From: Malachius bipustulatus
Taxonomy: Eukaryota > Arthropoda > Insecta > Coleoptera > Melyridae
Direction: 5' to 3'
Assembly: GCA_910589415.1 (NCBI GenBank)
Contig: OU342630.1
Coordinates: 78,674,186-78,738,185, forward strand
DNA: 64,000 nt
Within the stretch, counting starts at the first letter, position 1; each line of letters opens with the position of its first letter. The notes under the pieces are model-generated. The model searched no databases. It saw only the letters and a program-made list of their open reading frames with translations, and was not told the DNA's origin. A program made the translations under genes and the position numbers. Positions 726 to 40,966 of this stretch are shown in pieces.

Positions 726-3700
726 TAGGGCACTTGATAATCAGGACATTAAAAGTACTTTCTTATATTTCCAAGTAGAATCGAAAAATAAAATCAAAAT
801 TTAGGCATTCTATTATTCGGTATAACCGGAAGTGCCAGAATTTTTTGGAATCAAATTCCAATACGTTTTCGGGATACGTCTAATGGGTACCCTTTCGTGA
901 ATGATCCTATAGGTAGTTTTACATATCTCACCCACCCCAAAACGCCAACGCAATAATGTATGGAAGGAAACACAATAATATAGGTAGTAGGTAGATACTA
1001 TGAGAAATCAAATGCCAGTTCCTCCTAGAGTATTCACGAACACAGTCACCTAACAACCCCATTATTTTCTAGGTATCGATTATATCGCCTGATAGTGTGA
1101 TAGATAATTAATTAAATCACTTTAATGACTAGCTTTTCAAATCAAAGCTAGCAGAAAGTGGTGTTCAGTTTTGATTAAAAGTGACGCTAATTGTTGTATG
1201 AATTATAGCGAATGATTTTAATTTGATGGCACTGTAGACAATATGATTTGCATCAATAAGATTACCGTGTCAAATATTTACCCTGTAATTCAATTATTAG
1301 AGAGGCAGCTGTTGTACCTACACCGATTTCTGCTTTGGTTAGTTTTCTAAAATAATTTATAACTGCGATACTTTACATATATCCAGATTTCTTTTCTTTT
1401 AAATATTTTCAAAAAATGCAGTTATTTTTAAATGATGAAATGGGAATATAAAAACCATACAGGAGTTGGGCAATGTTATATATCTGGAGTGCCACAAGGG
1501 ACAATTTCAGTGCCACTACGGTACCTATATGTAGCGGGTAAAAAGATGAGATTTGAAACCGAAAAAAATATTAAATTTTTGCAAATGATACGTAAGTTTT
1601 TGATCATTTAACTCGCGTTTGTTGGAATATTTTGTCTATCCGAAATAAATCACTCGGCCAAAAATCGTTCAGCCTGTAGATACCTAACTTGACTTCATAG
1701 CTTAATTTTGTGTTGCCCTATTATTCACACCTTGGTACTACATTACATAATAATCACATGACAAAATAGATCCTATAAAAATTACACATATGAAATTTTG
1801 TCAATTTGTTAGAAAAATATGATTTTACGCAATTTAGAGTGTGTAGACGATTTTTGAAAATTGCATATGAATAAATAAAGATAGTAACGTTTTTTGCACC
1901 TTCATTACAGTAAAAATTCCATAATCAATGTAAAATATCCTAATAATAATTATGGAAAATGTACCTACCGATTTAGGTACGTACTTACTTACATAAAAAA
2001 TAATAAAATAATGAACATAAGTGCATGAACAGTAAAAAACGGATTACATAAAACTTATTTTTAGTAAAGCAAAAAGAATTCTTTTAAATTAATGTTTATA
2101 TCAAAAGTTCTAGGGTACCTACTTACGTTATTAAACTGGAACTTCTATTCCACACCATCCATTAAGGACTATTTAATTTTTTAGGTGAACACTGTGAAGG
2201 ATGCATTCACGAAAAGAGACAAATAGAAATTTAATTACATAAATTTAGAAATTCAGTAATAACATATTTGTTAATAATATGTGTATTACAGTGATTATTT
2301 GATAAGATAAATTAGTCGATTATGATTATTTTTACAACATTTCATATTTCAGATAACTTTGAAAGCCTTTTGTAAATACTAGAACGTAATAACAACAGAT
2401 AAATAAAATTCTAATAATGGTATCGATCACGTACTTATACTTACAAGTTCGCTATAAATTTCTAAAAATTGGCGCAAGTTACGAGGGAGATTCATTATGT
2501 GATTAGGATTATGAGAGTAATCAGGAATGTGTGATTATTTTGTGATGCTACTTAAGTCAATTATTTTTGTCACCTGTATGCATTTTCACATATTATGAAC
2601 ATGCATCTGCTTAAGACTTTGCCCTTCGCCAAATAGCAAATAGCAGCTGTATGTTCATAACTGCGAGACAAGCGTATTGATTATGATTTAGGTGTGAAGG
2701 TATGTAAGATTACCATGACGTCATAAGTGACATCATCTTTCTGCCAACTTTATTTAATTTTTTCAATTTGTTTGACGATATCAGAGGAAGTTGAGATGCC
2801 TTGTTTGAGATGCAAAGTTCACTTTTTGAACAATGCCTTATAATTAACATTGGCTACTTCCTGAGTGCTAATTCATTTTTTTATCACATGGCAATGGTGG
2901 AGATTTTAGGGTAGCGTGGGGTGTCTTGCCTCTAAATTCTACAACACTGGAAAAAATAGTATTTGGAAAAAAATAGCAAAACTTAAGAAAAAAACAAAAC
3001 TAAACAACTAACTAATAGAAAACTAATAGAAGAAATAAATAGAAAACAACAAAATAATAAAAATTGTTGAAAATGGTCACCTCGAAAATTCCTCGAATGT
3101 TATTGCGAATCGTATTGCAGAATGCAATAATGCGATTCATCGGTGGTTCTGGCCTGTAGTGTAAGCTAAACTTTTGAAGTCACCCCTTAAAAAAATCTTT
3201 CAAAATATCTAGCAGAAAATCAAGAAAATGATGAAATGATTGACCATTTAGTCTTAACGCGGAATAATACGGCTCCATTAAATTATCTCCTGCAACACCC
3301 GACCAAAAATTAGCGGAAAATTTTGCCGATGATCACCTTCCATTATAGCATGATGATTTTCCCCCGCCCGTATATGATTATTATGGAAATTTCACGCGAA
3401 AAATTTGTTCGTCCGAAAATTTAACTTGTTCTAAGAATTGTGCAATTAACATTGAAACAAGTGACATCATTAACACAATCTTTAATTCTTTGTGGGAATC
3501 CCCTGATAAAACTTGATAAAGCTTTCTAATCCTCCGTCCATACAGTATACATAAAAGATCCATACAGTATCCTCTATACTGTAACGTGGCTAAGCAGGTT
3601 TGCAGTTGTTTTTCTAGTACCTACTTGTTGCTAAATCGTCTTCGATTTTTTAAAAAACAGCTTCTTCCATTTGCCGGAATCAGGTGACGTCGCTCATTTC

Positions 3701-4190
3701 CAGCAGCTTTTCTGTGACAACTTCCAGTTGATAGCATATTCGTGAATACGAATAAACAACTGTTTTTCATTTGGTAGCCAGCTGTCAGTTTGACAAACTT
3801 TGTTGATAAATTCGTCACGCTGCTGCCGTAGCCTCAAATATTTATGAAATATTTTTCTTGTCTGTATCTCAAGAACGGTGCGTTTGCGGATCTCTGTTGA
3901 TGCGAACTTTTTTTCTTAAAATTGAACCAGGAATCCTACCTTTCATTTTCCGACGCATGTTTTGAAGCATCCTGTATTGCACTGGTAGGTAAGGAAGATA
4001 CCCTACTGATAGAACCTTAAGGGCGGTTGCACAAACTTAATTCAAAATCTGACTGACAACTACCGATTTTAATATGCAAATATCCAATTCACCCTTTCAG
4101 AAATGAAGATGCATAATATAGACAACTCAATTCAGAAATAGATGAAAAAATCATATACGCTAAAGAAAGATGGATGCAATAAAGATGTCA
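726..4190. other. AT-rich intergenic sequence, no gene seen
   Basis: This stretch is AT-rich with no convincing coding region; its open frames are short (65 codons or fewer) with no recognisable motif. Around 740-930 there is a degraded piece resembling the left half of the foldback at 43578-44337 (a TATAACCGGAAGT string and neighbouring sequence). Nothing else in it is assigned. Confidence 0.5.
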
Positions 4191-4194
4191 GGAA

Positions 4195-5700
4195 GTGGAA
4201 GATTTTCAAGCGAAACATAAATTTAGAGCGCTACACAGAAAAGTCAAAGAAACCGCAGGGCTCTGGAAACCTAAACGCATATCCAATGTGATAAATGGAA
4301 ACGATGAATTAAACCAATATCCTGAAAAAACAATATGGGAGAATTACCTCATGGAACTCTTTGGAGATGATAATGGACCCCAAGAATATATCCTCCAATA
4401 AACATGAAGGATAAACCAGCGAAGAAACCATCAAAAAATTCACCAACTTCTTTAACATCGTACATGGTAACGGCATAATGCCACATGATTGGGTGACTTT
4501 GAAATTTATAGCTGTACCGAAGAAAAATAAACCAAAGGGATGCGCAAAACAAAGAAGAGTAGTTTTGATGAGCCATGCCCTAAAAATTTTTATGCGTATA
4601 ATATTTGACGGCATACATAGAAAATGTGAAGAATATCTCTGTCGCTCACAATACGGATTCAGAAAGGGCACTGGCACTCATGAAGCTATTATTCTGGGAC
4701 TGTCATTAATATAGTAGAAATATACTTAAAAGTTCAGAGAACGCTGAACGTCTGTTTCGTTGACTACAATAAGGTCTTCGATCACATCAACCTTGACAAA
4801 TTGATCGAAATCTTAAAACAGATTGGATGAGATAACCATGACATAGCAATAATTCGCAATGTGTACTGAAACCATCAAGGCTGTGTCAGAACAGAACACG
4901 GTAACACCAACTACGTAGACATTGAAAGAGACACCATCAGGGATGATTCCTATCTCCACTGCTCTTTATTAACGTCAGATCATCCTTAAACAAACGCCAT
5001 GAAGGCGCCAAGATAAATGGTATCGTAATCAACAACATAAGATACGCGGACGACACGGTCATAATCATAATGCAGAATGTGAAGAACACTTGCAACTCTT
5101 AATGAACATACTAACAGAAGAAAGTCATCTGATGAGTCTGCAAATAAATGGGAATAAAACTTTTATAAAAAACATCATATAAAATGGAGCGTACCCTGAA
5201 AAACGTATAAAGCTATATTTATTTAGGTAGGGAGATAAACAGTCACTAGACCACTAAAGAAATTCGAAGAAAAAATCGAAATAGCTCGAGCGGGATTTAT
5301 GAATATGCGTAAAATTCTATGGCATATGAAACTATCAATGACAATTGTTTAACTAAAAGTACTACATTTGGTCGCTGTTACTTTACGGATGCAAGATGAC
5401 GTCAAAAAACTGAATGCATTCGCGCGATGTGGTTGTAGAGACGAATGCTACGGATAAAGTGACCCCTTATCTGGGCCATATGATGCGCCATAAAGAATTT
5501 GAACAGCTGCAATTAATACTGGAAGGAAAAATCGACGGGAGGGGAGGGGGAATCGGAAGAAAAAAGAAGTCATGGCTCCATAATATCAGAGACTGGACCC
5601 ACACGAATGGAAAAACATTATTGCATAGAACAGAGTTGGATTTGCCGAAATAGTCGCCAATCTCGATCGAGACGACACTTAGGAGGAGGAGAGTCTAACT
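4195..5700 (+). pseudogene. LINE ORF2 remnant (RT and C-terminal region)
   Basis: This is a degraded non-LTR retrotransposon ORF. In order it shows a linker before the RT (4195-4401, an open 68-codon piece with an IWENYLMELFGDD string), RT fingers (4478-4714, with CRRSQYGFRKGTGT-like wording, read as CRSQYGFRKGTGTHEA), a FVDYNKVFDHI string (about 4755-4790) and the catalytic YADD box at 5043-5054. The last part is a C-terminal region (5414-5653) with YLGHMMRHKEFEQLQLILEGK and a basic GRKKKSWLHNIRDW segment. The closing GRxxxSWLxNxRDW motif is characteristic of a LINE family common in insect genomes. Many frameshifts and stops separate these blocks. It ends in a short GGAGGAGGAGAG run near 5690 without a clear poly(A) tail. 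Confidence 0.85.
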
Positions 5701-25690: not shown

Positions 25691-27210
25691 AAATTCTTCG
25701 TTTTGGATGGAATTTATCCTAAGTTGACAAAAGTTTACGTGGGCTCTGCTCCTTCCATGTCTACCATCTTAAAAAGTGGGCAAAATTTAATGTATCTAAA
25801 CATGGCGGCAGGTCTCTTGAGACAGCGATGGTCCACGAGAAGGACGGCCAAAAATCGCCACCACACGGGAAAATATCGAAAAAGTGCATGATGCTATTTT
25901 AGACGATAGGCGAATGAAAGGTGAGTGATATAGCTGAGGCTATATGGGGATATCGGAATAACGGGTGCGAAACATCTTGCACAAAGAATTGGGGATGCGA
26001 AAGCTTTGCTAGATGATAGGTGCCGCATTTGCTGAATGCAGATCAAAAGCAAGACAGCGCACCTGCACACAAGAGAAAAAGTTACTTCCGTTCCCTATAT
26101 TCTCCTGATCTGGCACCCTCAAATATATTATATCTTTTCTTCTACAGTGTGACCCATTTGTTCTTGAAACACCCTGTAGAATCTTAATTTATGGTGCGAT
26201 TTTAAAGAAATTTCTTTTAAATCATATTTTGCTTGATAAACTATATTTTGGGAGCAAAAAGCGTCTCTCATTCCTACAAAATCCAGGGCCTACTAGATTC
26301 TAGATCAGTGTTTACTTGTAAAATCTCAAAAATTCATATTAGCGATTTTTTTAGAAAAAAACCGTGCACGCTACTGGATTCACCAGCTCTCAAAACGGTA
26401 CTGTACTAAATTTTATTGGAAATGTCAGAGTAATAAGGATCTTGCAGTTATTTTAGAAATTCATAATAGAACTCCGAATTTTCATTAATTTATTCGAAAA
26501 GGTCAAGAGAGACAAAATAGAAATTGTACGTCTAGTTGGTGATAATGTAGGTAGGTACTTTAATTTTTTAATTTTAATTTTTTATTTATTTATTTTTTTT
26601 TTTTATTTTTTTTTATTTTTTTTTTACTTTTTTTTACTTTTTTTAATTTTAATTTTTACTTATGATAGCTTTTGACCTTTTTCAAATAAATTTATGAAAA
26701 TTCAGAGTATTATTATGAATTTCTAAAATACCTACAAGATCATTTTTACTCTCGACATTTTCAATAAAATTTAGAACAGTACCGTTTTGAAGGCCGGTGA
26801 ATCCCGTGGCGTGCCCAGTTTTTTTCTAAAAAAATCGCTAATATGAATTTTTGAGATTTTACAAGTAAACACTGATCTAGTAGGCCCTGGATTTTGTAGG
26901 AATGAGACGCTTTTTGCTCCCAAAATATAGTTTATCAAGCAAAATATGATTTAAAAGAAATTTCTTTAAAATCGCACCATAAATTAAGATTCTACAGGGT
27001 GTTTCAAGAACAAATGGGTCACACTGTATATTATATCTGTTCTCAAACTTTGAGAAATTTTTCTGGGAAGCGCTTCGCGTCCAATGAAGAAGTTGAAAGG
27101 GCCATTGATGAATACTTTTACATCTTTCCAGACTCTCACTTCCAGGAAGGGATACTGATGGTGGAAAAACGCTGGACCGAGTGTGTTGAAGTCAAGGGGA
27201 TCATGTAGAA
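25690..27210 (+). pseudogene. mariner transposase remnant split by a foldback
   Basis: The left part shows N-terminal mariner wording in changing frames: LTKVYVGSAPSMSTI near 25730, ENIEKVHDAILDDRRMK near 25870, a diverged AEA region near 25935, HKELGMRKL near 25980 and HLLNADQKQD near 26025. The catalytic core with the first two aspartates is deleted; YSPDLAPSN with the third follows near 26095. The element is then interrupted by the foldback at 26145-27026. The C-terminus resumes after 27045 with SGKRFASNEEVERAIDEYF and VEKRWTECVEVKG. The family resembles the SETMAR/Mos-type mariners. It is inactive. Confidence 0.85.
26145..27026. mobile_element. foldback MITE, 882 bp, nested in a mariner
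   Basis: Identical ends CAGTGTGACCCATTTGTTCT and the reverse complement are flanked by TA (26143-26144 and 27027-27028). The arms are about 380 bp and nearly identical, sharing for example GAAACACCCTGTAGAATC, TTTTGGGAGCAAAAAGCG and AAATCCAGGGCCTACTAG. The centre (about 26560-26660) is a T-rich tract. The left arm has small insertions relative to the right (an extra CT near 26259 and TTCTAGA near 26298). Confidence 0.95.
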
Positions 27211-27760: not shown

Positions 27761-28336
27761 CGAATTTAGAAAAGTTTTTAACGAACGTCCAAAGATCTCC
27801 ATGATTTTTCTCAATTGTCACTTGGGAAAGTAAATTTACGTAGCGGTCACGTGGAATTAAGTAAGCCAGCGATCACGAGTCTGTTAGTACACGCAGAGGT
27901 CACCACATTGTAAAGGATCGAATAGATAATCCAATTTCTATAATTATTTAATATTTAAGAATTTTATAAAGTTAATAAAACTCTTTCAAGATGATGTAAT
28001 CCAATTTATGGAACGTCCGAATTTAGATTTCATTACATAAGCAGAAGGGAAATATAATATAAGCGGGCATTGAAGCAATAATTCTGGTAAGGTCAGCACC
28101 AGGGAAACCAAATACGCCTGTAGTCCGACGGCGGCACAGGAAGGTAAAGTCATTAATAAAGACCCAACTCGAAATTAAAACTCAAGAGAACAGATTAGAA
28201 TTATTTTCCCAGATTAAAAACTGCTCAAAAATCATGTAGAGCCTTTTAGTAGGATGCTAATTATCAAAACCAGATGGTCAGCGGCGTGAGTACAGAGAGA
28301 CATTGTTGAATTAATAGCCGCCAGACTAAACTATTG

Positions 28337-28344
28337 TATAAAAG
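28337..28344 (+). promoter_or_regulatory. LTR TATA box
   Basis: TATAAAAG lies about 430 bp into the LTR in a GTATAAAAGATTAAG context, a plausible position for the U3 core promoter. The copy in the 3' LTR is at 39310-39317. Confidence 0.55.
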
Positions 28345-29078
28345 ATTAAGTTTCGGACGTGATCAAAACTGGGTTTTCGAAAAACCGCTGAGTGAGGTCA
28401 ATTGCAGTTGTGGGAACGAAAACCATTCAACTGAAAAAGGCGGAGTTAGTGAGAGGGCGGTTCCAAATTATTTAATGAGAGAAAAAGAGGAAAATATTCG
28501 GACATCGGCATCAGAACTCTGATTGGGAAATTAAGTAGCTTGGGGGTAAAACGTCTAAGCCAGGGAGTTAAGAAGTAGGCGGTCAAACCGACTAACTCGA
28601 AAAAGTGGGAATTAAAAATTTCAGAGAGGAAAAAAGGAGTCTCCTTTCAGCTGTCGTCGTAACAGTTTGGGGAACGCGAAAAGTCTCTGGTAGTTAACCA
28701 GAACAATTAATCTAATTGGCGTCGCGACGGTTATCCGCGAAATTAGTCTTGTTATTTAAAACAAAGTGTTTGTTAGCTAAGTAAAAATTAGTTACGCGAA
28801 GTAGAACCGCGAACTTTCTTGAAGTTGATTAAGAAAATTATTCTTCAATAATTTTTAGTTAAAGTATTCGCAGTTATTTGTGAGTGAATAATCAGTTATC
28901 CCGAATAGGAATAATAATTATTACACGGTCGTAATACGGGTAATGTCTCAGTGAAGTGCCCAATAATTGGATTCTTTGGATACATTCGGATTTTCCTTAA
29001 AAGGAGAAAGGTCAGAGATTTCTGTATACTAATACTTATGTACTTTGGTATATTTTGGAACCTTAAGGGTTACCGTTC

Positions 29079-29084
29079 AATAAA
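29079..29084 (+). promoter_or_regulatory. LTR polyadenylation signal candidate
   Basis: AATAAA within TTCAATAAAGTCAG, about 740 bp downstream of the LTR TATA box. Another AATAAA occurs near 29299, so the signal actually used is uncertain. Confidence 0.4.
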
Positions 29085-29989
29085 GTCAGACAATTTAATA
29101 GACAGTTGTGGATGAATAACCCACAGGTTGCTAAATAAAATACACCTTGAGTGTGTCGTGTCAAAAAGGCACTAAGATTTTTTTTTTGATGTTGTTATAT
29201 ACCAAGGTAAATAATTTTGTAATTATTTACTACTTGTAAGGTATGGTTACTGTAATAAAGGATAAAGTACCAACTATTAATCAAAGATTGATTTTACCAA
29301 TAAAGGGGTAAATAAACTTAATTACTAGGTATTATTATTATTAAAGGTAATAGTTTATATTATATCTCTCACAATTTCGATGCATCCGTGAGGGAAAATT
29401 AAGTGAAATCTATTGTAGATATTAGGGGTATATTATAGCTATCAAATTATATAGTGTTTTGTACGTTTATATTATTATTTTATAAATAAAATTTATTAAA
29501 TTAAATTCATGAATTTAATTTTGCTCACCCAGACATATTAAAATTAAACAAAACGAATGGTCTGTTAAGTGATATAAATAACATAGAGAAAATTTCATTA
29601 AATTATTTTTTTCTATTTAATTTTCTTAATTTCAATCAGACCAACTAAACAAAAGAAAAAGCTAAGTTAGGAGTGTAATTAACTCTCCTAAGACATAATA
29701 TAAAAAACAGGAACACTAATAGTTCCGAATCAGAAGAGAGGCCTGGGCAGAGTCATTGAAAATTATTTTTTTTTTTAAGGTACGTATAGATTTTTTTTTC
29801 TATTGTTTCTCTTTAGTGAATTTGACACTCGAGATCGCCACGGTGTATGCCAGTGGTCAGATCCGGCTCCACGACTTCCTTTCAAAAACTTTAGTTCCGC
29901 TCGGCTAAAAAATCAAAAGGTTGACTATCAACAGGGGACCTCGTAACCGGTTGTCTTGCATAAACAGGCAGGAGGCCCGCGTTGCTACA

Positions 29990-31026
29990 TTGGGTCAGGA
30001 GCGGGGTCTAAGAGTGTCAAAGAACGCTGAGAAAAACAAGTAGGAAAGGTTTTGAGTGTCAAAAAGACCGGCATAAGAAATAGGAAAATGTCAAAATTCC
30101 CCTAGGATTTTTTTTATAAGAAAATTTTTAAGTACAGGTACCTTCCTACCTACCTAGTCGGGTTAAATTATACCCATAAATTAAGGTAAATAAAATTACC
30201 AAGTTAGGTCCCTAATTAATTTAGAAGGGCAGAAATTGATTGAAAGGAAAAATTTGTTAATTTTTTTATATCAATAATTATTAAGATTAAAAGATTGATA
30301 AATAGATCTGCAAATTATAAGTAGATAAATACTACGTTTCAGAGAGAACCGCTAAAATGAGCAGTACGTGCTGAAACCGTAATTACTGAAGTAGGTATTT
30401 GTTTATGATATACGGCGCCGGAATTCAGGCGCGAGCAAATATTAAAGCTAAAGCGGCGTTCAGACTAAGAGGAAAAATCAAAAGTTGAGTGAATACCTAA
30501 TTACAGTGCCATAAATTGTACAAGTGGCTATTTATTTTTAGTTGGCTTATTAACCCTTATATGCAAGGTATATTTTTTTAATAACTATTTTGATAATCTG
30601 GATAAATATTGGTCTATGGTTATATTGTTATTTTTGTGTACTGCGTTAGGCTTAAGCCTTATTTTGTTTTGCACTGTATTGGCAATTGTGTGTCGTTACA
30701 GAAAAGGAAAAATGACTTGTGGTTGCATTGTTTGAACAGCTGTTATTTTATTGATGTTTTGACCTATTAGGTCATTTTTATTTTATTTTTGTCGTAATTT
30801 AAACAATTACACAAATGGATTTGTTTTATTCTGTCAAAGTAAATAACCATGTTCCGTCTGAATTTTTCGGGGCTGTTAAGGTTAATTGTTTCTATTTGGA
30901 TTTGTTTAGAATGGTTTAGTATTGATAGGGGAATTCGATTGCTAAAAATTAGAATCGATAATGGCATCAATAATTTTTGTGATTAGCAAACTGTTCTCTA
31001 CCGGTTAAAAAATTAAAGGGAGCAAA
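29990..31026 (+). other. retroelement leader with primer-binding-like site
   Basis: The leader runs from the LTR end to the gag start codon. TGGGTCAGGAGCGGGGTC begins at 29991, one base after the LTR, in the right place for a tRNA primer site. It is closest, from memory of tRNA 3' ends, to tRNA-Leu but lacks one base after TGG. The rest has no open frame of note (a short antisense frame at 30767-30970 is not convincing). It may hold packaging signals. Confidence 0.6.
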
Positions 31027-34000
31027 ATGCCGGAAGGAGACCCAGGGCCTCCTCAGGCAAGGCCGCACCGAATCGAGGTTACGGCAGTTCAGAAGGTTAG
31101 CTTGGGGGTTTTAGCCTCCACCTTCGATAGTTTTAATGGACAAGGCTCAGTAGTTGAATACTTTAATCAACTGGAAGCTAGAGCACGACTTGACAACTTA
31201 AGTCAAGTTGACACTTTGAAACTTTTCAAATTCAAACTAACGGGAGAAGCAGAACAATTCTTCAAGGCAGATGGAGAATTGGATAAGTTGTCATATAATG
31301 ACCTTAAGGCAAAATTCGTACGAAAATTTTCTCAGATACGGATACCAGGAGAGGCCCTATTGAGATTATTACGATGTTTTCAGCGAACGGATGAGAACGT
31401 GACATCGTTCTGTATCAGATTAAAATCTTTGGGGGCCTGCGCTTTGACAGATGCCCTGATTGATGTGGAACATGCCACACAGGAGCAAAAAGTCGGAGTG
31501 AAGATGCATCATGGACAGCTGGTGCTGAATCAGTTCAAACAAGGATTAAGAAAAGACTTGATGGAAAAGGTCGGCATGACATTATTTGCCGAACAAAATT
31601 TAACTCTCGATCGAGCGGAAGAAATAGTCAAATTGCAAGAATTGACTTATCTCATGACGAGACAGAACTTCCAAGGAGAAGTTGTAAAGTTGTGCAGTTA
31701 TTGCTCCAGGAAAGGACATACCTCAAGTGAGTGCCAAATAAATAAAGAGAAAGAATTCGAGAAGCCAGAAAGCCATAGTTTTACAGGGGGAACACATGCC
31801 AAAGTATACGGGAATATTCCACTGATGGAAGAATTTACGACAGATGCCGTCCCGTATTTGGTAATTTTAAATGTAAACGGCACACCCAGGAAATGTTTAT
31901 TAGATTCAGGAGCCTCTGTCTCTCTTATTAAGGAGAGCATTGTACCACGAAGGGCGGAAATTTTTTCTATGAAAAATCGATTGAAAATTTTAGGAGTGAC
32001 AGGCCACTCCCTACCCTTGAAAGGAATGACAAATTTAATTGTGGATGCAAGACCAAGGTCACACGTTCAAGTCACAACTCCCTTTGTTATTGTAGACGAT
32101 GGAATGTTCGAAGATTCGGATGTTCTGCTAGGAAGAGATTTCCTGAAACGAAACAATTGTAGCATGCAGTATTACAAGACAGGGACATCACAGATTCGCT
32201 TGTGGGGAGCATCCCTCGCCTTATTAAATAGCGAACAAGCGGAATATCGAATGCAAGAGGCTGGAATATATTTTGTGACAAGCAAAAAATCAGGGAAACG
32301 TTCAGTTAGTCAAGGACAAAATTCCCGAAAATATAGCGACGTTGTAGCAGGCCGTAGTAGTTGTCAAGAATACCCTAGGTCTACGCCCCAGGAAAAGGAG
32401 TACATAAGAAAACCAGCGAGAAAACCGATCCAGAATGAATGGATAAATTCTAGAATAATTCAAAGGTCCAAGAAGGTAAGACAACCTCGACGCGAGACTT
32501 CGCCAAGGACACAGAAGTTCGAACAAACTCCGGAAAAACCAGAAGAAGGTTTGGATCAAGGGACAGCAACTCCGAAAAATGTAATATCAAGACCAAAAAG
32601 GAAGAAGAATTCCTCGAAAAATGGTTACGCGACAAACCGGAAAGTGGGAAAAAATTCTCACAACTTCGAAAATTTGGAAAAGAAGAAAAACAAGTTTTCT
32701 TCAGGAAAAACTACTCAATCAGAATGGGAGGAATGGTTAGAATTTATTAGAGAATTCGTCTCCAACTATGAATTTGAAGAAAGATTCAGGAAACTAAGAG
32801 GTAGCGAAAGGAAAATTTTGGAATGTTCTAAACCAGAGATAAATTCCGAGAAAAATACCGATGAGGAAAAAATGCGAAAAGAGCAACAAGAAATGCTTAA
32901 ATTTATGGTAAATTTGGAAAAGGATGCCTTGGAAGCTATGATCAAAGAAGAAGAGCAGGAAGCAAACAGCAAGCATCAATTGACAAACCAGGAAGGAGAA
33001 TTACCTTCAGAGACACTCGTAAACATTTATGACTATGAAGACACTGCAATGGAAGAAGCAAGGGATAATTTGCTACGAACAAATTTAGATTTGGAACCTA
33101 CATGGGATAAAGAAATTATTAAGAAGTTACAGGAGCAAGATGAATACTGTAGTGGAATACTACAGCAGTATCAGGCTGAGGAACCTGATATCCTTGAAAA
33201 ATATCATGTGGACAAGGAAGGAGTTTTATATTTCTCCCGTAATCAAGATCACGATGATGTTCTAGTAATACCTAAGAAAATGATAGCCAAAGTTCTTTCA
33301 GAATTTCATGATCCACCTTTAATTGGACATCCAGGTCAGGAAAAAACACTTGGAATTATCAGCACCAGATTTTATTGGCCATCTATGAGGAAGGACATCA
33401 TAGAATATTGCCAAAGCTGTGATCAATGTCAAAGGAGAAAAACTTCTCCGCATTTGGGAAAAGCGCCCATGAAACTTTTTAATAATCCTTCAGGACCTTT
33501 CGAGATGATCTCTATGGACATTGTGGGACCCTTAGTAAGAACACACCGGGGAAATCGATATTTATTGACGGTACAGGATCTGTTTACTAAATATCCAGAA
33601 GCCATTCCTCTTGCTGATCATAAAGCAGAAACTGTAGCAAGAGCTTTAGTGGAACATGTGTTCACGAGACATGGGACACCAAGAAAGTTACTTAGTGACT
33701 TAGGGGCAGAATTTACTTCAACTCTGATGAAAGAAGTGTGTAAGTTAATGGGAATAAAACAAGTACACACTGCTAGTTATTCCCCAAATGAAAATGGCAG
33801 CATTGAAAGAATGCACAGGGATCTGAAAATAATGCTTTCGCATTACGTATCAAAAAATCAACAAGATTGGGACGAATATGTTCCTTATGTGTTGATGGCA
33901 ATAAGAGGAAGAGTGCATTCCTCCACAGGGCATAGTCCATTCTATCTCGTACATGGACGAGAGCAAAGGTTACCAGTAGATGATTTTGTAACATCTACCA

Positions 34001-34806
34001 GGAGGAGATACGACTATGATGAAGACTACTCCTCAGAACTTTCAGAACGTCTAAGGAATGTGTATCGAGCGGTGAATGAAAACCTGGAAAAAGCGGGACT
34101 CCAGAGAAAAGCTCAATACGACAAAAACACGAAAAGGAAAAGTTTCCAGGAAGGAGACTTAGTCTATGTGAAAGATATGGCAGCCAAATTAGGACTGTCG
34201 AGAAAATTAAGTTCAACATGGGTTGGCCCCATGACAATTGTCGAAGTATTAGGAGAGAAGACATTTGTGGTTAAACAACAAGGGAAAAATAAAGAATATA
34301 CCGTCATGATAGACAGGATGAAACCTTATGTCAAAAGGAGCGAGCTGTATGAGACTACAGAGCAAAAAGAAGCTAAGGGCAAACCTAGGAAGGGCAACAG
34401 GCCTACACAAACCTCAAATAGGGAATCTGACAGTGAAACGGATGAAGAAATCGACACTGAGGAAGAAGAAGAAGAAGACCCAGAAGAGTCCTACGGACAA
34501 GAAAATAAATCAGGATCAAGGTCAAAACGCCGACAGCGTAGAACAAGGGAAGACTCATTTAATGAGGAAAGTGAAGAACTCTCGGACGAGGAAGAGGATC
34601 CGGAAGTACGACGAGCCAGGAAGGAGGCACAGAGAAACGCGCAGATGTATTTGCCGTTCTGTCCACAGATAATGTACTATCCAACGCCCGCCATGATGGC
34701 GCCACCTCAGCCAATAGCTAGATTACCGGCTCCAATTCCCCCAGAAAGACCACTTCCGCGGAGATCTTCCAGACTACGACGACCGCCGGTTCGGTTGGAT
34801 TTGTAG
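31027..34806 (+). CDS. gag-pol: Gag-protease-integrase polyprotein lacking RT/RNase H
   Basis: A single 1259-residue ORF starts at an AAAATG-context codon. Residues about 20-215 are a Gag capsid-like region (FNQLEARARLDNLS; KFVRKFSQI). A CCHC zinc knuckle follows at C223, C226, H231, C236. An aspartic protease shows LLDSGAS with catalytic D293 and LLGRDF at 367-372. Residues about 390-690 are a basic then acidic spacer, rich in Lys, Glu, Ser and Asn, with no RT or RNase H motif (no YxDD, no LPQG). Integrase follows: zinc-binding H761, H768, C798, C801; catalytic D831, D891, E927, with 35 residues between D891 and E927; and a GPY/F-type module with WVGP at 1065-1068. The tail has a Glu/Asp-rich stretch and a Pro/Arg-rich end. 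A normal Gypsy Pol would carry RT and RNase H between protease and integrase. Gag and Pol share one frame with no frameshift. All integrase and protease catalytic residues are present. Confidence 0.93.
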   Translation: MPEGDPGPPQARPHRIEVTAVQKVSLGVLASTFDSFNGQGSVVEYFNQLEARARLDNLSQVDTLKLFKFKLTGEAEQFFKADGELDKLSYNDLKAKFVRKFSQIRIPGEALLRLLRCFQRTDENVTSFCIRLKSLGACALTDALIDVEHATQEQKVGVKMHHGQLVLNQFKQGLRKDLMEKVGMTLFAEQNLTLDRAEEIVKLQELTYLMTRQNFQGEVVKLCSYCSRKGHTSSECQINKEKEFEKPESHSFTGGTHAKVYGNIPLMEEFTTDAVPYLVILNVNGTPRKCLLDSGASVSLIKESIVPRRAEIFSMKNRLKILGVTGHSLPLKGMTNLIVDARPRSHVQVTTPFVIVDDGMFEDSDVLLGRDFLKRNNCSMQYYKTGTSQIRLWGASLALLNSEQAEYRMQEAGIYFVTSKKSGKRSVSQGQNSRKYSDVVAGRSSCQEYPRSTPQEKEYIRKPARKPIQNEWINSRIIQRSKKVRQPRRETSPRTQKFEQTPEKPEEGLDQGTATPKNVISRPKRKKNSSKNGYATNRKVGKNSHNFENLEKKKNKFSSGKTTQSEWEEWLEFIREFVSNYEFEERFRKLRGSERKILECSKPEINSEKNTDEEKMRKEQQEMLKFMVNLEKDALEAMIKEEEQEANSKHQLTNQEGELPSETLVNIYDYEDTAMEEARDNLLRTNLDLEPTWDKEIIKKLQEQDEYCSGILQQYQAEEPDILEKYHVDKEGVLYFSRNQDHDDVLVIPKKMIAKVLSEFHDPPLIGHPGQEKTLGIISTRFYWPSMRKDIIEYCQSCDQCQRRKTSPHLGKAPMKLFNNPSGPFEMISMDIVGPLVRTHRGNRYLLTVQDLFTKYPEAIPLADHKAETVARALVEHVFTRHGTPRKLLSDLGAEFTSTLMKEVCKLMGIKQVHTASYSPNENGSIERMHRDLKIMLSHYVSKNQQDWDEYVPYVLMAIRGRVHSSTGHSPFYLVHGREQRLPVDDFVTSTRRRYDYDEDYSSELSERLRNVYRAVNENLEKAGLQRKAQYDKNTKRKSFQEGDLVYVKDMAAKLGLSRKLSSTWVGPMTIVEVLGEKTFVVKQQGKNKEYTVMIDRMKPYVKRSELYETTEQKEAKGKPRKGNRPTQTSNRESDSETDEEIDTEEEEEEDPEESYGQENKSGSRSKRRQRRTREDSFNEESEELSDEEEDPEVRRARKEAQRNAQMYLPFCPQIMYYPTPAMMAPPQPIARLPAPIPPERPLPRRSSRLRRPPVRLDL

Positions 34807-36625
34807 AAGACGCGTTAATTGCCCGTGTCTGGCCCGGGTTAAGAATAGGCAGACCGCCATGCAGCGTGTCGTAAGAGGCGGCAGAAGCATCAAAATTTCT
34901 ATTCTTTAAGAATAGGCAGTCCGCCATGCAGCGTGTCGTAAGAGACGACAGAAAGCATTGTATCGAGCACGGAAGGCTCGAAGGTCAAGAAACGGATTAC
35001 TGTTATTTCCAGTTGCTTTATGAGGAAGCACAAGTCAGAATGTCTGGATGACATTACAATTTTACTCGTGTCCATCCCAGATGACACAAAGAGTTTGAAG
35101 ACAGGCAGTCTGCTGAGCTAGCATGTCATATTAGGAAGAATAGCTCCATTTTCTTCTTAAGACAGTGAGTCTGTTTTTTCGTATAAAGCGTATAAGTGCC
35201 AAAAGCGATTCAAAAGACTTCAAAGGTTCAGAAGGTTTGAAGCGAATCAAAAGGGCATAACGGATGTAAAGGAAGGTGAACTTTCCGATTAACGAAATGT
35301 TGTCCGACGAGTTGAAGTAAACTGTCGAAAGATTATTAAATTGCGCTACAAGTGCGCCAATTCTGTAAATAATTCGCAGAAGCATTATTAGAGTTGATGA
35401 GTTATATATGGAGTAGGTATCCATAGAAAATCCTTATCAGTATAGGAGGGTCGAATCAGTTGACCCGAATTCTAACAAATGGTGTCAAAAATAGACAGAC
35501 ATAAGTTTGATATAGGCAAAGTTTATTAGAGTAGTTCAAGGAATAGGTTGAGAATAGTATACAGGGCGAAATTTTGGGCTTCCGAATCGTGGCATTGGAG
35601 GGTCTGAGGTAGGTGTCACCCTGTTATCCGCTCAGTTCTCCGTGTGACGATGACGGAGGACCAAGATTCGACCTGGAAGATTACTTATCGAAATTAAAGG
35701 AATATTTAATGGAAATTCGAAATATAAATCAGCATAGGTTAGATAATTATCTAGGTATGTTATTATGCACATATAATCGCCTATAATTAATAATTAGTCA
35801 TAGGAAGGCTAGAATTAATCAATAAGGTGAAGTTAAGGTGAAAGATAGAAGCAGACACCTGAATGATGAACAACAAAAGGTAAGGGTTATGATGAACTCT
35901 GTTCAGGTGATGCAACTAGAAACCAGTTTCCTTGTGACCTCAAAATATCTGACGTGCATAAATCGTCAGGAAATCATAGATAAATGGGAGGTAAGGGATA
36001 AAGAATTTCCTCCAGGGGATGAAATTAATTCATTAAATAAGGTCAGGTTCAGACCAGGGAATTAACAAGTTAAGTATTCCAGGAACAAACCAATAATGGA
36101 TAATAAAGATCCAAGGTCAATGACACACAATCAATGGATCAAAAATATTATTCACGGAATTTTTCAAAGTTAGAAACTTTTGACTTAAGGAGGAAAATTC
36201 AATTTAAATTTTCAAACGTCATAATAGACGAGAAAATACGGCCCAGTAAATGAATGAAGCTGGAAAAGGCAGGATGGTTACTCCCATTGAGTAAGCATCT
36301 GGTCTGTTCGACAGAGATCGAACAATTATCATTGTTATTGTAAATTTTGATATGTATTTTGTATTAAAACTAACAGTAAGGTTAGATTGTAGACTAACAG
36401 CAAGGTGCTGTAGAGAAAATAGAAATGTACTGTATTGTAGAAATAAAATTAGGAGTGAATGCATAAGGTATAGGGTGAAAATTAAATAAAATGACGGACT
36501 GAATTAATAAAATGTGATTTTCAAAAGGTGACAACACGAACTGCAAGTGTGAGGACATTAGTGAATTTCAATTAAAATACAGAAACGTCATAAACAATTT
36601 CGTGAATTCATCCGCGATCGGTACC
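34807..36625 (+). other. gag-pol to env spacer of the retroelement
   Basis: This 1.8-kb interval has no open frame above 100 codons and no RT motif. It begins with the tandem hairpin repeat at 34841-34958. Diverged echoes of the repeat appear near 35097-35140 (GACAGGCAGTCTGCTGAG) and 35158-35180. It probably holds the splice acceptor for env, but no single candidate stands out; CAG near 36583 is one possibility. Confidence 0.6.
34841..34958 (+). repeat. two-copy 67-bp-period hairpin repeat
   Basis: Copies at 34841-34890 and 34908-34958 share AAGAATAGGCAG(A/T)CCGCC followed by ATGCAGCGTGTCGTAAGAG. Each folds into a 5-bp stem with an AAGAG loop: GTCGT/GCGGC at 34868-34882 and GTCGT/ACGAC at 34935-34949. 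The two substitutions between copies keep pairing in RNA as U-G versus U-A. The position just after the gag-pol stop suggests an RNA-level role. Confidence 0.7.
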
Positions 36626-38614
36626 ATGCATATCCTAACGTCAATAAGTTTTCTACTAGGGCTAGTTCAGTGTTGGAGCTTGATAGCCTACGACTGTGAA
36701 GATGTGCGAACAAACATATCAACAGTTTCAATCAAGGATGTAGCAGAATGTCCAGAACCAGAATCAGAATACGTTGTGGAAAAGGTAGACGTCAGCGTCA
36801 TCCAGCGAAACCAGGTGAAACTCCAGAAGGTGATGACTTGTTTAGTAGAAGTCATCCAAACCAAATTCTATTGTGGTCACTTATCACACAGTTCTGTGGT
36901 CAGTGGAAGTATGTCAAGCTATGTATATCAGCTGGGAGCACAACAATGCCAAGAAGTACACAGATACAAAACCTTGCGCCTATTCAATCAAGTAATAGGA
37001 CAAATAGTTATGAATGGAAGTACACAAGCTTCCTTGACAATACATGGAACCTTGCACGCAAATGGGTACTGCGAAGGAATCAGCTACCAAGAAGCAGGGA
37101 ACTTCTGGGAAAATATTGTAATTGTAGCAGCTATAACGATCAAGACGAGAGACTATTTTGCTAGCGTCAAAATCGAAGAAAATGAAATCAGTTTATTGAG
37201 TGGAATCACGTGTCCATATTTGGCTGAATATTGTTTTGATACAGTGTACGGAGAAACCGTATGGGAAGAAGAAAGAGAATCCGGGTGTTTAAACTACTTT
37301 ACCTTGCTCTATACAGGTAAAGCAAGACAAGTCACCAGTCGAACCACGAAGGAGAAATTTATGATCGTGGAAAGCAATGATAAAATCTTCGCCCTCACTA
37401 TGGTGAAGAAAATTTCATTGTGCGGCGACGAAGTGTGGCAGACTGAACACCCTAGGCTGGTGTTGACAATAAATAACACAGCCTTGACGCAAACTTCAGG
37501 TATGAAACTGATACCTCAGAATACTGACCTACTCATGTACATGAACAGTAAATTTCTGTACATAGAGCAGGCTTACAAAGGAGAATTGGAAAGATTATAT
37601 CTAGATGTCCTACATAGAAGATGTCTACTACAGCGAGAAATCCTGAGGAACCGGTTACTAATGGCTCCATTTTCACCAAACGCTGTCAGCCAGCTGTTGA
37701 AAAATGAACCAGGATACGTAGGAAGAGTTTTGGGAGAAGTCCTTTATATCATGAAATGCACTCCCAAGGTAGTGATAATCAGGCGTACCTCAGAGTGTTA
37801 TAATGAGTTACCCATCACTCTAGATGAAAAACCTTATTTCATGTCTCCAATCACTCATGTAATACAGGTTTATGCTGAACAGATAGAGTGCAACGGTGTC
37901 GCGCCTCCTCTATATGAAATAGATACTGAATGGGTAGGACTAACGCCGTATCCGACTGGGAAGAGAGATCCAGAGAAGTTGCCAGTGGAAGCCAAGCCGA
38001 AACTGACGTTCAAACCGATATTGCCATTAGGACAAGCAGGACTCTACACCCAGGAAGAAGTCAACAAGGTGCAGCGACTATTGACGTTTGGGATCGAACG
38101 TAAAGCCGTCGAAAACATTATCACGCGTCGTGTCGCGGGAATGCCCACAAGTGGACAAGGGTATTCCACTCTCGGAATCTTCAACCCGGAAGAGTTGAAG
38201 GAACTAACGCGATCTACACTCAAACAAACTTGGGGTTGGTTTGTAGATCTAGGAACTTTTATCAGTGGAGTTATCGGATTCTATGTGGTCTTTAGAATCT
38301 GTAAATACGTAATTGGAGTAGTGTTAAATGGACTACACTTGTATCAAACTCTAGGTTACGGGTGGAAACTCCTCGCGTGCATCTGGAATTCGCTCACGGT
38401 AATGTTAGTGCAAAAACATTTGTGGAAACAAACGCGAGAAAGTGCAGACGAGAAGGAACTTGAGACAATAAACGTGACTGAATCACACGTAAACGAAGTG
38501 CGTACCGAACGGGAAGCTGAAGGACAAGGTCAGGTGGTGCACGTACTATATCCTACGTTGCCTCATAATGCAAACCCAACTCACTGGACAGACAAGGTCA
38601 GTGCCACGACCTAG
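36626..38614 (+). CDS. env: env-like membrane glycoprotein
   Basis: A 662-residue intact ORF, third in the retroelement. I chose the ATG at 36626 because the open frame upstream starts only with GTG and because this ATG places a hydrophobic signal peptide (about residues 2-17) at the N-terminus. The ectodomain has many cysteines, including a YCGHLSHSSVV string near residues 81-91, and NxT/S sites. A long hydrophobic segment near residues 545-570 (ISGVIGFYVVFRI to VIGVVLNG) is the likely membrane anchor, and a second hydrophobic stretch and a charged cytoplasmic tail follow. From memory, the cysteine layout and the YCG(M/H)xSH-type motif resemble glycoproteins of chuvirus-like negative-strand viruses and related captured insect retroelement envelopes, rather than baculovirus-F-type errantivirus Env. 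That assignment is an inference. Expression would need splicing or a separate promoter. Confidence 0.8.
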   Translation: MHILTSISFLLGLVQCWSLIAYDCEDVRTNISTVSIKDVAECPEPESEYVVEKVDVSVIQRNQVKLQKVMTCLVEVIQTKFYCGHLSHSSVVSGSMSSYVYQLGAQQCQEVHRYKTLRLFNQVIGQIVMNGSTQASLTIHGTLHANGYCEGISYQEAGNFWENIVIVAAITIKTRDYFASVKIEENEISLLSGITCPYLAEYCFDTVYGETVWEEERESGCLNYFTLLYTGKARQVTSRTTKEKFMIVESNDKIFALTMVKKISLCGDEVWQTEHPRLVLTINNTALTQTSGMKLIPQNTDLLMYMNSKFLYIEQAYKGELERLYLDVLHRRCLLQREILRNRLLMAPFSPNAVSQLLKNEPGYVGRVLGEVLYIMKCTPKVVIIRRTSECYNELPITLDEKPYFMSPITHVIQVYAEQIECNGVAPPLYEIDTEWVGLTPYPTGKRDPEKLPVEAKPKLTFKPILPLGQAGLYTQEEVNKVQRLLTFGIERKAVENIITRRVAGMPTSGQGYSTLGIFNPEELKELTRSTLKQTWGWFVDLGTFISGVIGFYVVFRICKYVIGVVLNGLHLYQTLGYGWKLLACIWNSLTVMLVQKHLWKQTRESADEKELETINVTESHVNEVRTEREAEGQGQVVHVLYPTLPHNANPTHWTDKVSATT

Positions 38615-38867
38615 GAAGTCATTAGCAAGTGCGGTTAATTACTATCGTACGTGACTTCATACGTAAGTGTCTTCGTCAACTATACCTTAGACTATATACA
38701 TAAATGGGAGGAGGTGTTATCCTCAGATCATGTATAGGTATAAGCATGTATTATTAGCATAACTTAGACTTAAGTTATTGATAGGCTATCTCCTACTACT
38801 AAGGGTAGATTATAGGGGTAGGGGGTTAACAAATCGACAAGTTTTGTAAAACAAGAATCGATTTGAC
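38615..38867 (+). other. 3' untranslated region of the retroelement
   Basis: The short interval from the env stop to the polypurine tract has no open frame or motif of note. Confidence 0.6.
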
Positions 38868-38878
38868 AAAAAAGGGAG
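38868..38878 (+). promoter_or_regulatory. polypurine tract
   Basis: AAAAAAGGGAG, followed by TTA and then the 3' LTR at 38882, is the expected plus-strand primer site for reverse transcription. Confidence 0.85.
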
Positions 38879-38881
38879 TTA

Positions 38882-40962
38882 TGTAAAGGATCGAATAGAT
38901 AATCCAATTTCTATAATTATTTAATATTTAAGAATTTTATAAAGTTAATAAAACTCTTTCAAGATGATGTAATCCAATTTATGGAACGTCCGAATTTAGA
39001 TTTCATTACATAAGCAGAAGGGAAATATAATATAAGCGGGCATTGAAGCAATAATTCTGGTAAGGTCAGCACCAGGGAAACCAAATACGCCTGTAGTCCG
39101 ACGGCGGCACAGGAAGGTAAAGTCATTAATAAAGACCCAACTCGAAATTAAAACTCAAGAGAACAGATTAGAATTATTTTCCCAGATTAAAAACTGCTCA
39201 AAAATCATGTAGAGCCTTTTAGTAGGATGCTAATTATCAAAACCAGATGGTCAGCGGCGTGAGTACAGAGAGACATTGTTGAATTAATAGCCGCCAGACT
39301 AAACTATTGTATAAAAGATTAAGTTTCGGACGTGATCAAAACTGCGTTTTCGAAAAACCGCTGAGTGAGGTCAATTGCAGTTGTGGGAACGAAAACCATT
39401 CAACTGAAAAAGGCGGAGTTAGTGAGAGGGCGGTTCCAAATTATTTAATGAGAGAAAAAGAGGAAAATATTCGGACATCGGCATCAGAACTCTGATTGGG
39501 AAATTAAGTAGCTTGGGGGTAAAACGTCTAAGCCAGGGAGTTAAGAAGTAGGCGGTCAAACCGACTAACTCGAAAAAGTGGGAATTAAAAATTTCAGAGA
39601 GGAAAAAAGGAGTCTCCTTTCAGCTGTCGTCGTAACAGTTTGGGGAACGCGAAAAGTCTCTGGTAGTTAACCAGAACAATTAATCTAATTGGCGTCGCGA
39701 CGGTTATCCGCGAAATTAGTCTTGTTATTTAAAACAAAGTGTTTGTTAGCTAAGTAAAAATTAGTTACGCGAAGTAGAACCGCGAACTTTCTTGAAGTTG
39801 ATTAAGAAAATTATTCTTCAATAATTTTTAGTTAAAGTATTCGCAGTTATTTGTGAGTGAATAATCAGTTATCCCGAATAGGAATAATAATTATTACACG
39901 GTCGTAATACGGGTAATGTCTCAGTGAAGTGCCCAATAATTGGATTCTTTGGATACATTCGGATTTTCCTTAAAAGGAGAAAGGTCAGAGATTTCTGTAT
40001 ACTAATACTTATGTACTTTGGTATATTTTGGAACCTTAAGGGTTACCGTTCAATAAAGTCAGACAATTTAATAGACAGTTGTGGATGAATAACCCACAGG
40101 TTGCTAAATAAAATACACCTTGAGTGTGTCGTGTCAAAAAGGCACTAAGATTTTTTTTTTGATGTTGTTATATACCAAGGTAAATAATTTTGTAATTATT
40201 TACTACTTGTAAGGTATGGTTACTGTAATAAAGGATAAAGTACCAACTATTAATCAAAGATTGATTTTACCAATAAAGGGGTAAATAAACTTAATTACTA
40301 GGTATTATTATTATTAAAGGTAATAGTTTATATTATATCTCTCACAATTTCGATGCATCCGTGAGGGAAAATTAAGTGAAATCTATTGTAGATATTAGGG
40401 GTATATTATAGCTATCAAATTATATAGTGTTTTGTACGTTTATATTATTATTTTATAAATAAAATTTATTAAATTAAATTCATGAATTTAATTTTGCTCA
40501 CCCAGACATATTAAAATTAAACAAAACGAATGGTCTGTTAAGTGATATAAATAACATAGAGAAAATTTCATTAAATTATTTTTTTCTATTTAATTTTCTT
40601 AATTTCAATCAGACCAACTAAACAAAAGAAAAAGCTAAGTTAGGAGTGTAATTAACTCTCCTAAGACATAATATAAAAAACAGGAACACTAATAGTTCCG
40701 AATCAGAAGAGAGGCCTGGGCAGAGTCATTGAAAATTATTTTTTTTTTTAAGGTACGTATAGATTTTTTTTTCTATTGTTTCTCTTTAGTGAATTTGACA
40801 CTCGAGATCGCCACGGTGTATGCCAGTGGTCAGATCCGGCTCCACGACTTCCTTTCAAAAACTTTAGTTCCGCTCGGCTAAAAAATCAAAAGGTTGACTA
40901 TCAACAGGGGACCTCGTAACCGGTTGTCTTGCATAAACAGGCAGGAGGCCCGCGTTGCTACA
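38882..40962 (+). repeat. 3' long terminal repeat, 2081 bp
   Basis: Same length and same sequence as the 5' LTR apart from C at 39345 (G at 28372). It ends TACA directly before the ACAT target duplication. Confidence 0.95.
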
Positions 40963-40966
40963 ACAT

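What the first reader, a model, noticed from the sequence alone, without database searches (positions are those of the whole stretch)
27909..40962. A recent LTR retroelement with gag, protease, integrase and env but no reverse transcriptase
Seen: 2081-bp LTRs with one difference noticed, exact ACAT duplication, polypurine tract, a 1259-codon ORF with intact protease D293 and integrase D831/D891/E927, and an intact 662-codon env-like ORF. Not seen: any RT or RNase H motif between protease (ends about residue 380) and integrase (starts about 690), or in the 1.8-kb spacer or leader. Known: Gypsy Pol order is protease-RT-RNase H-integrase, and non-autonomous LTR elements usually lose all or most ORFs. 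Inference: a trans-mobilised element that keeps its own capsid, protease, integrase and envelope while borrowing RT would be a distinct kind of partial autonomy.
Basis: partly seen in the sequence, partly recalled or inferred. Interest (0 to 1): 0.88.

Follow-up and report, generated by a model that had tools for sequence, protein, structure and literature searches.

The report
Beetle proviruses that borrow reverse transcriptase
This beetle genome carries recently inserted retrovirus-like elements that have cleanly lost the copying enzyme (reverse transcriptase) but keep their shell, cutting, inserting and envelope proteins, and were evidently copied by enzyme from complete relatives; a similar loss is seen in a second, related family.

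Summary
In detail: LTRs differ at 1 of 2081 sites, with a 4-bp ACAT duplication, an intact Gag-protease-integrase ORF and an intact chuvirus-type Env; no reverse transcriptase (RT) or RNase H was found. Searching the same assembly explains it. Complete siblings carry an RT-RNase H-macro block (2217 bp, 739 codons in the copy measured) where this copy has a seamless in-frame junction. Four copies on three contigs share that junction, each at its own insertion site with a 4-bp duplication and paired LTRs differing by at most one substitution. A 0.5-kb core is unique to the RT-less copies; outside it they are mostly mosaics of RT-bearing siblings, as co-packaging and copying by a sibling's enzyme would give. 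A sister family (66-67% identical integrase) has its own RT-less form in five copies with different breakpoints; all five keep integrase and env, and gag and protease were read in one. RT loss thus most simply happened twice, and each form multiplied. Semi-autonomous derivatives are known (mouse IAP 1-delta-1; wheat Sabrina, Quinta). What looks new is the set Gag+protease+integrase+Env without RT, in a Gypsy element with a chuvirus-class Env, and its recurrence. There are no expression or functional data; a single-ORF hypothesis failed.

The parts
27905..27908 (.). 5' target-site duplication ACAT
27909..29989 (+). 5' LTR, TGT..ACA
   Evidence: 2080/2081 identical to 3' LTR
29990..30007 (+). 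primer-binding site region (TTGGGTCAGGAGCGGGG); same in RT+ copies L013 and L016
   Evidence: tRNA identity (leucine-like) recalled, not tested
31027..34806 (+). ORF1: Gag-protease-linker-integrase, 1259 aa, no RT or RNase H found
31690..31737 (+). CCHC knuckle of Gag (CSYCSRKGHTSSEC)
   Evidence: sequence; present in 4 of 4 RT-less family-1 copies
31861..32163 (+). aspartic protease (RVP), motif LLDSGA
32179..33018 (+). charged linker between protease and deletion junction; no relative at E<=1e-3 in the protein search (RT+ siblings in this genome share it)
32743..33251 (+). core tract identical in the four RT-less copies; holds 27 of the 28 fixed differences from RT+ copies found in gag, protease-linker, integrase and env (32796 to 33234; the other is in env)
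33018..33020 (+). deletion junction: RT+ siblings carry about 2217 bp (RT, RNase H, macro-like; 739 codons in L011) here
33094..34344 (+). integrase: H2C2 zinc finger, D831/D891/E927
34807..36625 (+). spacer between pol and env, longest frame on the + strand 79 codons, variable among copies
36626..38614 (+). env: chuvirus-class (Monjiviricetes) fusion glycoprotein, 662 aa from ATG
38868..38878 (+). polypurine tract AAAAAAGGGAG, same in 6 of 6 copies compared
38882..40962 (+). 3' LTR
40963..40966 (.). 3' target-site duplication ACAT

Best explanation
The element is a semi-autonomous deletion derivative of an env-carrying Ty3/Gypsy family in a beetle. An in-frame loss of the RT-RNase H-macro block joined protease-linker to integrase. 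The shortened genome keeps LTR, primer site, leader and polypurine tract, so (inferred) its RNA is packaged together with RNA of complete siblings into particles holding their RT. RT supplied in trans copies it, template switching reshuffles its flanks, and integrase inserts it with a 4-bp duplication. Shown: the block's presence in siblings, one junction in four copies, separate insertion sites, near-identical paired LTRs, mosaic flanks, open ORFs in 4 of 4, and a second case in a sister family. Inferred: co-packaging, the use of siblings' RT, and any role of the RT-less copies' own proteins.
For: Siblings carry the block at the junction; in L011 it is 2217 bp with RVT_1 E=6.8e-32 and RNase H E=6.5e-36. 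Of 20 fetched copies, 15 carry the block, 3 share the window's junction and 2 have other deletions. Of 39 genome matches to a 281-bp junction probe, 4 span it; 17 match the left side only and 18 the right side only. LTR pairs of the four: 1/2081, 0/2121, 1/2074, 0/2094 plus one 1-nt indel; duplications ACAT, AAAC, TGAT, ACAT. RT block stop-free with YLDD in 14 of 15. Sites varying among RT-less copies whose states all occur in RT+ copies: gag 13 of 14 and integrase part 19 of 27, protease-linker 36 of 43 substitution sites. Second family: 5 junction-spanning copies against 19 that match from the junction rightwards only.
Against: No transcript, particle or protein evidence. One assembly only; genome searches score the best candidates, so copy counts are lower bounds. 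Recombination with RT+ copies could by itself keep the RT-less ORFs intact, so intact ORFs do not prove that their products are used. The junction core differs from the RT+ copies compared by 27 sites in about 0.5 kb (11 of the 14 on its right side change amino acids), more than a fresh deletion would, so its source is not identified.
Confidence: 0.86

Rival explanations
1. Two-component cooperation: RT-less copies are kept because their Gag, protease, integrase and Env products help the whole family, with RT needed only in small amount from complete copies.
For: Two in-frame RT losses with different breakpoints, each multiplied (4 and 5 copies). ORF1 and env frames open in all four family-1 RT-less copies. 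Private integrase changes 6 silent to 2 amino-acid changing, P about 0.0016. Two other RT deletions, L027 and L029, have broken frames and no second copy among the 20 fetched. Wheat Sabrina and Quinta are read this way by their authors (PMC9744471, PMC11302176; passages).
Against: Recent insertion plus recombination explains intact ORFs without benefit. Fixed differences at the junction are not silent-biased (11 changing to 3 silent right of it). Two of five family-2 RT-less env frames have a stop. The specific idea that only single-ORF Gag-Pol elements lose RT failed: the family-2 copy read has gag and pol in separate frames.
Confidence: 0.25
2. Plain parasite: RT-less copies are passengers; their proteins do not matter and they spread only because their RNA carries the signals for packaging and copying.
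For: Same LTR ends and polypurine tract as helpers, shared primer-site types; mosaicism.
Against: In both families the multiplied deletion is in frame and keeps the integrase; integrase differences within the RT-less group are silent-biased (rate ratio about 0.08 over 6 non-independent pairs), though much of that variation was imported.
Confidence: 0.4
3. Ectopic gene conversion pasted the RT-less junction tract into RT+ copies after insertion, so the RT-less form never moved as such.
For: The shared core is short, about 0.5 kb, with mosaic flanks.
Against: Four copies on three contigs with near-identical LTR pairs leave little time, and it would have to happen again in family 2. Retroviral template switching gives the same pattern without extra assumptions. 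L015 and L022 are also each other's nearest neighbours in two steps outside the core.
Confidence: 0.1
4. Assembly collapse or a single somatic or late deletion.
For: Repeats are prone to misassembly.
Against: Same junction in four copies with different flanks; 5 further copies in another family.
Confidence: 0.01
5. RT-free movement as DNA by integrase, as in Ginger-type transposons (recalled).
For: Integrase and LTR ends are kept.
Against: Each of the four copies is a full LTR-to-LTR provirus; the two LTRs of L015, L021 and L022 match each other far better than they match the window's LTR, the mark of reverse transcription; the ends are long direct repeats, not terminal inverted repeats.
Confidence: 0.02

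Closest known systems
Mouse IAP 1-delta-1 elements (PMC7411935, passages read; primary paper Saito 2008 not held)
   Same: Internal gag-pol deletion giving a fused product; still needs full-length relatives' GAG and POL in trans; [quoted passage not shown]
   Different: There a gag-pol segment is lost and the product is a Gag-Pol fusion; here the RT-RNase H-macro block is lost, Gag, protease, integrase and an Env remain, and two families show it
Wheat semi-autonomous RLG_Sabrina_SA and RLG_Quinta (PMC9744471, PMC11302176; passages read)
   Same: Lack RT yet keep an ORF (Gag-protease, or Gag plus an unknown domain); proposed to be mobilised by an autonomous partner; for Quinta the same PBS and LTR ends, and recombination, are described
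   Different: They also lack integrase; no env (recalled, not in the passages)
Insect Gypsy endogenous retroviruses with F-type Env (PMC12992720, passages)
   Same: LTR element with Env; RT+ siblings here have the canonical PR-RT-RH-IN order
   Different: Env here is of chuvirus class, not baculovirus F type
Anakin, a mosquito BEL/Pao element with a chuvirus glycoprotein (PMC10084718, PMC12440569; passages)
   Same: LTR element carrying a chuvirus-type glycoprotein
   Different: BEL/Pao, not Gypsy. PMC10084718 reports glycoproteins within complete transposon boundaries in two cases only, Anakin and an unclassified element of Bemisia tabaci, and no clear evidence of capture by Gypsy; here Env sits inside an intact LTR-bound Gypsy provirus

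Membership tests
Ty3/Gypsy (Metaviridae) LTR element | LTRs with TG..CA ends and short target duplication | tested here: met
Ty3/Gypsy (Metaviridae) LTR element | Pol order protease-RT-RNase H-integrase | tested here: not met
   Not in this copy; met in RT+ siblings of the same family
Ty3/Gypsy (Metaviridae) LTR element | Integrase and protease homologous to Gypsy | tested here: met
Semi-autonomous LTR element | No RT, but intact other ORFs | tested here: met
   Four family-1 copies:
Semi-autonomous LTR element | Autonomous partner with the same LTR ends, PBS and PPT, active at the same time | tested here: met
   Six copies compared: LTR ends and PPT alike; the PBS type varies, and the window, L015 and L022 each share theirs with an RT+ copy while L021's first site matched none exactly; LTR pairs near-identical in RT+ L013 and L016 too
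Semi-autonomous LTR element | Actual mobilisation by the partner's enzyme | not testable with these tools
   Inferred from insertions and mosaicism only
IAP 1-delta-1-like deletion derivative | One shared in-frame internal deletion in several recent copies | tested here: met
Chuvirus-class Env element | Env matches Monjiviricetes fusion glycoprotein family | tested here: met
   PF24664 over residues 12-655, E=2e-175
Spliced-RNA-derived copy | Excised block bounded by GT..AG | tested here: not met
   Best fit TG..AG; a GT..AG cut would remove 2218 bp and break the frame (read)

The most novel reading that the evidence does not exclude
Env-carrying Gypsy proviruses in this beetle run as two-component populations: complete genomes that supply RT, and repeatedly evolved RT-less companion genomes that still supply capsid, protease, integrase and Env. 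RT would be the one module free to be shared, so its loss is recurrent and tolerated or favoured, while integrase must stay in frame with protease. The diverged 0.5-kb core hints that the companion allele is old and has been passed among RT+ backgrounds by template switching.
Probability: 0.25. Interest if true: 0.85.

Novelty: new variant of a known kind. Interest (0 to 1): 0.62.

Why it matters
It helps to separate which retroviral functions can be shared between co-packaged genomes and which are kept. Two sister families lost the RT-RNase H-macro block in frame and kept integrase and env (and, where read, gag and protease), close to a natural replicate of one experiment. It also shows an intact Gypsy provirus family with a chuvirus-class envelope, for which the 2023 survey that I read in passages (PMC10084718) found no clear evidence, and it gives recent copies for testing cooperation against parasitism among proviruses.

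Tried and rejected
Single deletion or assembly collapse: rejected. RT hidden in leader, spacer, LTR or other frames: not found. Splicing origin of the deletion: not GT..AG. Linker 385-686 as a degenerate RT or an outside domain: no relative at E<=1e-3 among 1975 candidates; weak resemblance to PR-RT linkers of P0001 and P0019 (z about 2.7 and 3.3; 5 and 2 of 200 shuffles as high). Hypothesis that RT loss occurs only where Gag-Pol is one ORF: family 1 fits without significance (p=0.085, counting copies as independent), the family-2 copy read contradicts it. Env profile against solved structures: no relative. Scans of viral contigs and genome contigs and tblastn of the integrase part in phages gave no relative; tRNA and Rfam scans of the window found nothing. 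A genome search with the Gag-protease protein did not complete.
Full report
What is there. The window lies at 78.67-78.74 Mb of contig 1 of a 544-Mb, 52-contig assembly. Of 42 Env homologs all those that carry a species name are from beetles (Molorchus, Leptinotarsa, Harmonia, Psylliodes, Photinus, Gonioctena, Onthophagus, Carabus; the beetle status of these genera is recalled), so the host is taken to be a beetle; it was not identified further. The element runs from 27909 to 40962 with 2081-bp LTRs that differ at one site, TGT..ACA ends and an ACAT duplication. ORF1 (31027-34806, 1259 aa) holds a CCHC knuckle, an aspartic protease and an integrase with D831/D891/E927. ORF2 is an Env of the Monjiviricetes fusion glycoprotein family (PF24664, E=2e-175), 45-53% identical to 15 and 29-40% identical to 3 of the 18 homologs aligned (18 of 42 found).

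No RT. Pfam gives no RT or RNase H hit at E<1 for ORF1, ORF2 or six small element ORFs. A local profile of 87 Gypsy RT-RNase H segments gives no credible match to any of 2119 six-frame pieces of the window (best E 0.62 outside the element, 8.3 inside), nor does tblastn with those segments (best 0.05 outside, 0.24 inside), while tblastn with relatives finds protease, integrase and Env. Between protease and integrase lies a charged 302-codon linker without stops; chance of that at its composition is about 4e-10. The linker region found no relative at E<=1e-3. The best outside relatives of ORF1 are Gypsy proteins that do contain RT and RNase H (P0001, P0002).

Siblings with RT in the same genome. 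An integrase query found 85 matches, some of them two pieces of one copy; the count is a lower bound. I fetched upstream stretches for 20 of the 84 others: the 19 best-ranked (96-100% identical) and one further partial match (97%). Fifteen of 20 carry extra DNA at window position 33019. In L011 it is 2217 bp, 739 codons, in frame (2004 = 1265 + 739), coding RVT_1 (E=6.8e-32), RNase H (E=6.5e-36) and a weak Macro match (E=0.007, below its cut-off). In 14 of the 15 the block, read in the fixed frame, has no stop and a YLDD motif; L026, which is frameshifted, shows 24 stops and no motif. Three of 20 (L015, L021, L022) have the window's junction; two (L027, L029) have other, larger deletions and broken frames.

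One junction, several insertions. A 281-bp junction probe gave 39 matches genome-wide: 4 span it at 100%, 17 match only the left side, 18 only the right side. The four lie on contigs 1, 7 (two) and 16, with target duplications ACAT, AAAC, TGAT, ACAT and LTR differences of 1/2081, 0/2121, 1/2074 and 0/2094 plus one 1-nt indel (window, L015, L021, L022). ORF1 is open in all four (1265, 1265, 1270, 1274 codons stop to stop) and so is the Env frame (698, 698, 699, 698). Two RT-bearing copies whose LTR pairs were compared in full (L013 1/2076, L016 0/2133 plus one indel) are as young.

Mosaic structure. RT-less copies form one clade in the integrase tree (support 0.999), but that piece includes the right half of the core described next; in the gag and env trees they mix with RT+ copies. 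In gag, protease-linker and integrase, 27 fixed differences separate RT-less from RT+ copies, all at 32796-33234: 13 left of the junction (12 RT+ copies compared) and 14 right of it (11 amino-acid changing, 3 silent; 13 RT+ compared). Env adds one silent fixed difference (3 RT+ compared). LTR and leader were not tested for fixed differences. Outside the core, sites that vary among RT-less copies mostly show the same states in RT+ copies: 13 of 14 in gag, 36 of 43 substitution sites in protease-linker (counted by eye; a 15-nt indel, also shared, left out), 19 of 27 in the integrase part. In 250-bp steps over leader, gag, protease-linker and integrase (72 step-by-copy outcomes, counted by eye), the nearest neighbour is RT-less alone in 13, of which 8 are the two core steps; RT+ alone in 18; both alike in 41. 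This is what template switching between co-packaged genomes gives. It also weakens any claim of long independent evolution: much of the silent-biased variation inside the RT-less group (67 silent to 21 changing over six overlapping pairs, rate ratio 0.08) was imported. The private changes alone are 6 silent to 2 changing in integrase (P about 0.0016 against neutral), with few sites; in env 19 to 3, with only 3 RT+ env sequences compared. The fixed changes right of the junction go the other way (11 changing, 3 silent), so the new linker was relaxed, adapted, or came from a diverged source.

A second family has it too. RT matches (61) were set by eye against integrase matches. In a sister family (integrase 66-67%, RT 73-74% identical) 17 of 22 integrase matches have an adjacent RT match and five have none. 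Two further matches at 64% (C4:6.95M, C16:16.68M) and various more diverged or partial ones also lack one and were not looked at. The junction read in one of the five joins ...GIQEQGLENK to ATVNVVQPD..., while an RT+ copy reads ...GLENKEEKDVL at the left edge and ...ANRATVNVVQPD at the right edge; family 1 breaks at other places (SETLV / NIYDY), so the deletions are most simply independent. A 241-bp probe spans the junction in five copies, the same five, and 19 others match only from the junction rightwards (40 of 56 candidates scored, most of its 484 matches being repeat units and not all listed). Open frames of the five (1153, 1263, 1318, 1384, 1516) differ by multiples of 11 codons, which fits the repeat seen in the linker. 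All five have env beside them, three open and two with one stop. One copy was read further: its Gag frame (at least 338 codons, two CCHC-type motifs) is open, with protease-integrase in another frame; gag was not read in the other four. For the first 1371 bp of its LTR both ends of that copy match 100%; pairs in three more have equal or nearly equal scores; for the fifth only one LTR was listed (40 of 64 candidates scored). Family-2 duplications were not seen.

How it most likely works. Identical paired LTRs with a fresh duplication are made by reverse transcription and integration. The element has no RT that I could find, siblings with intact RT and the same LTR ends and polypurine tract are present and equally young, and RT-less genomes exchange sequence with them. 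The simplest reading is packaging with a complete sibling's RNA and copying by its RT. Whether the RT-less copies' own Gag, protease, integrase and Env are used is open. That both multiplied deletions keep the frame, while the two other RT deletions seen (L027, L029) have broken frames and no second copy among the 20 fetched, hints that they are, as reported for IAP 1-delta-1, whose fusion protein facilitates retrotransposition in cis while GAG and POL are still needed in trans (PMC7411935, passages). The frames of L027 and L029 may also have broken later. A stoichiometry version (only one-ORF Gag-Pol elements lose RT) was tested and failed on family 2.

Compared with what is known. Semi-autonomous LTR elements that lack RT and integrase but encode Gag or Gag-protease are described in wheat (PMC9744471, PMC11302176; passages). 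I saw no report of an LTR element that keeps Gag, protease, integrase and Env without RT; searches for that: (two returned no paper), in an open-licence library only. Chuvirus-type Env in an intact Gypsy provirus: searches; PMC10084718 (passages) reports enrichment of Gypsy sequence beside such glycoproteins in Hymenoptera and Coleoptera, two cases within complete transposon boundaries (Anakin and an unclassified Bemisia element), and no clear capture by Gypsy. New variant of a known kind.

Noticed in passing
L036:993-2225 (RT+ copy L013) and L033:4385-5617 minus strand (RT-less copy L022): A 411-codon open frame lies between pol and env in these two of the six copies read there, and not in the window copy; no Pfam match at E<1. 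An accessory frame of unknown origin found in both an RT+ and an RT-less copy.
   Followed up: partly
L012, L013, L017-L020, L023 (upstream stretches), 3448-4560: Eight of the 15 RT+ copies carry a second Gag type, about 70% identical in DNA; in seven of them a 371-codon gag frame overlaps pol in another frame, while 5 of the 7 window-type RT+ copies have one continuous Gag-Pol frame. Gag is swapped as a module on alike LTRs.
   Followed up: partly
P0002 residues 646-743; L011:5841-8057: A Macro domain match between RNase H and integrase in RT+ relatives (E=0.0004 and 0.007, both below the curated cut-off); the region is lost with RT in the RT-less form.
   Followed up: no
Family-2 linker, L041: The protease-to-RT linker is a tandem repeat of 11-residue units (GLQEQGSRNNK type); frame lengths of 17 of 18 RT+ family-2 copies and all five RT-less ones differ in steps of 11 codons.
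   Followed up: partly
L011 2690-2830; L021 4961-5040: Primer-site-like segments repeated near the LTR end, with different primer-site types between otherwise alike copies.
   Followed up: no
P0002 (Leptinotarsa tropomodulin isoform X2): An annotated host gene product fused to a Gypsy RT-integrase of this group; probably a gene-model artefact.
   Followed up: no
window 26143-27028: A foldback just upstream of the element: three nested inverted-repeat pairs of 125, 127 and 74 nt, 88-100% complementary.
   Followed up: no
window 30493-30732: An 80-codon hydrophobic open frame in the leader before gag, no convincing family match.
   Followed up: no
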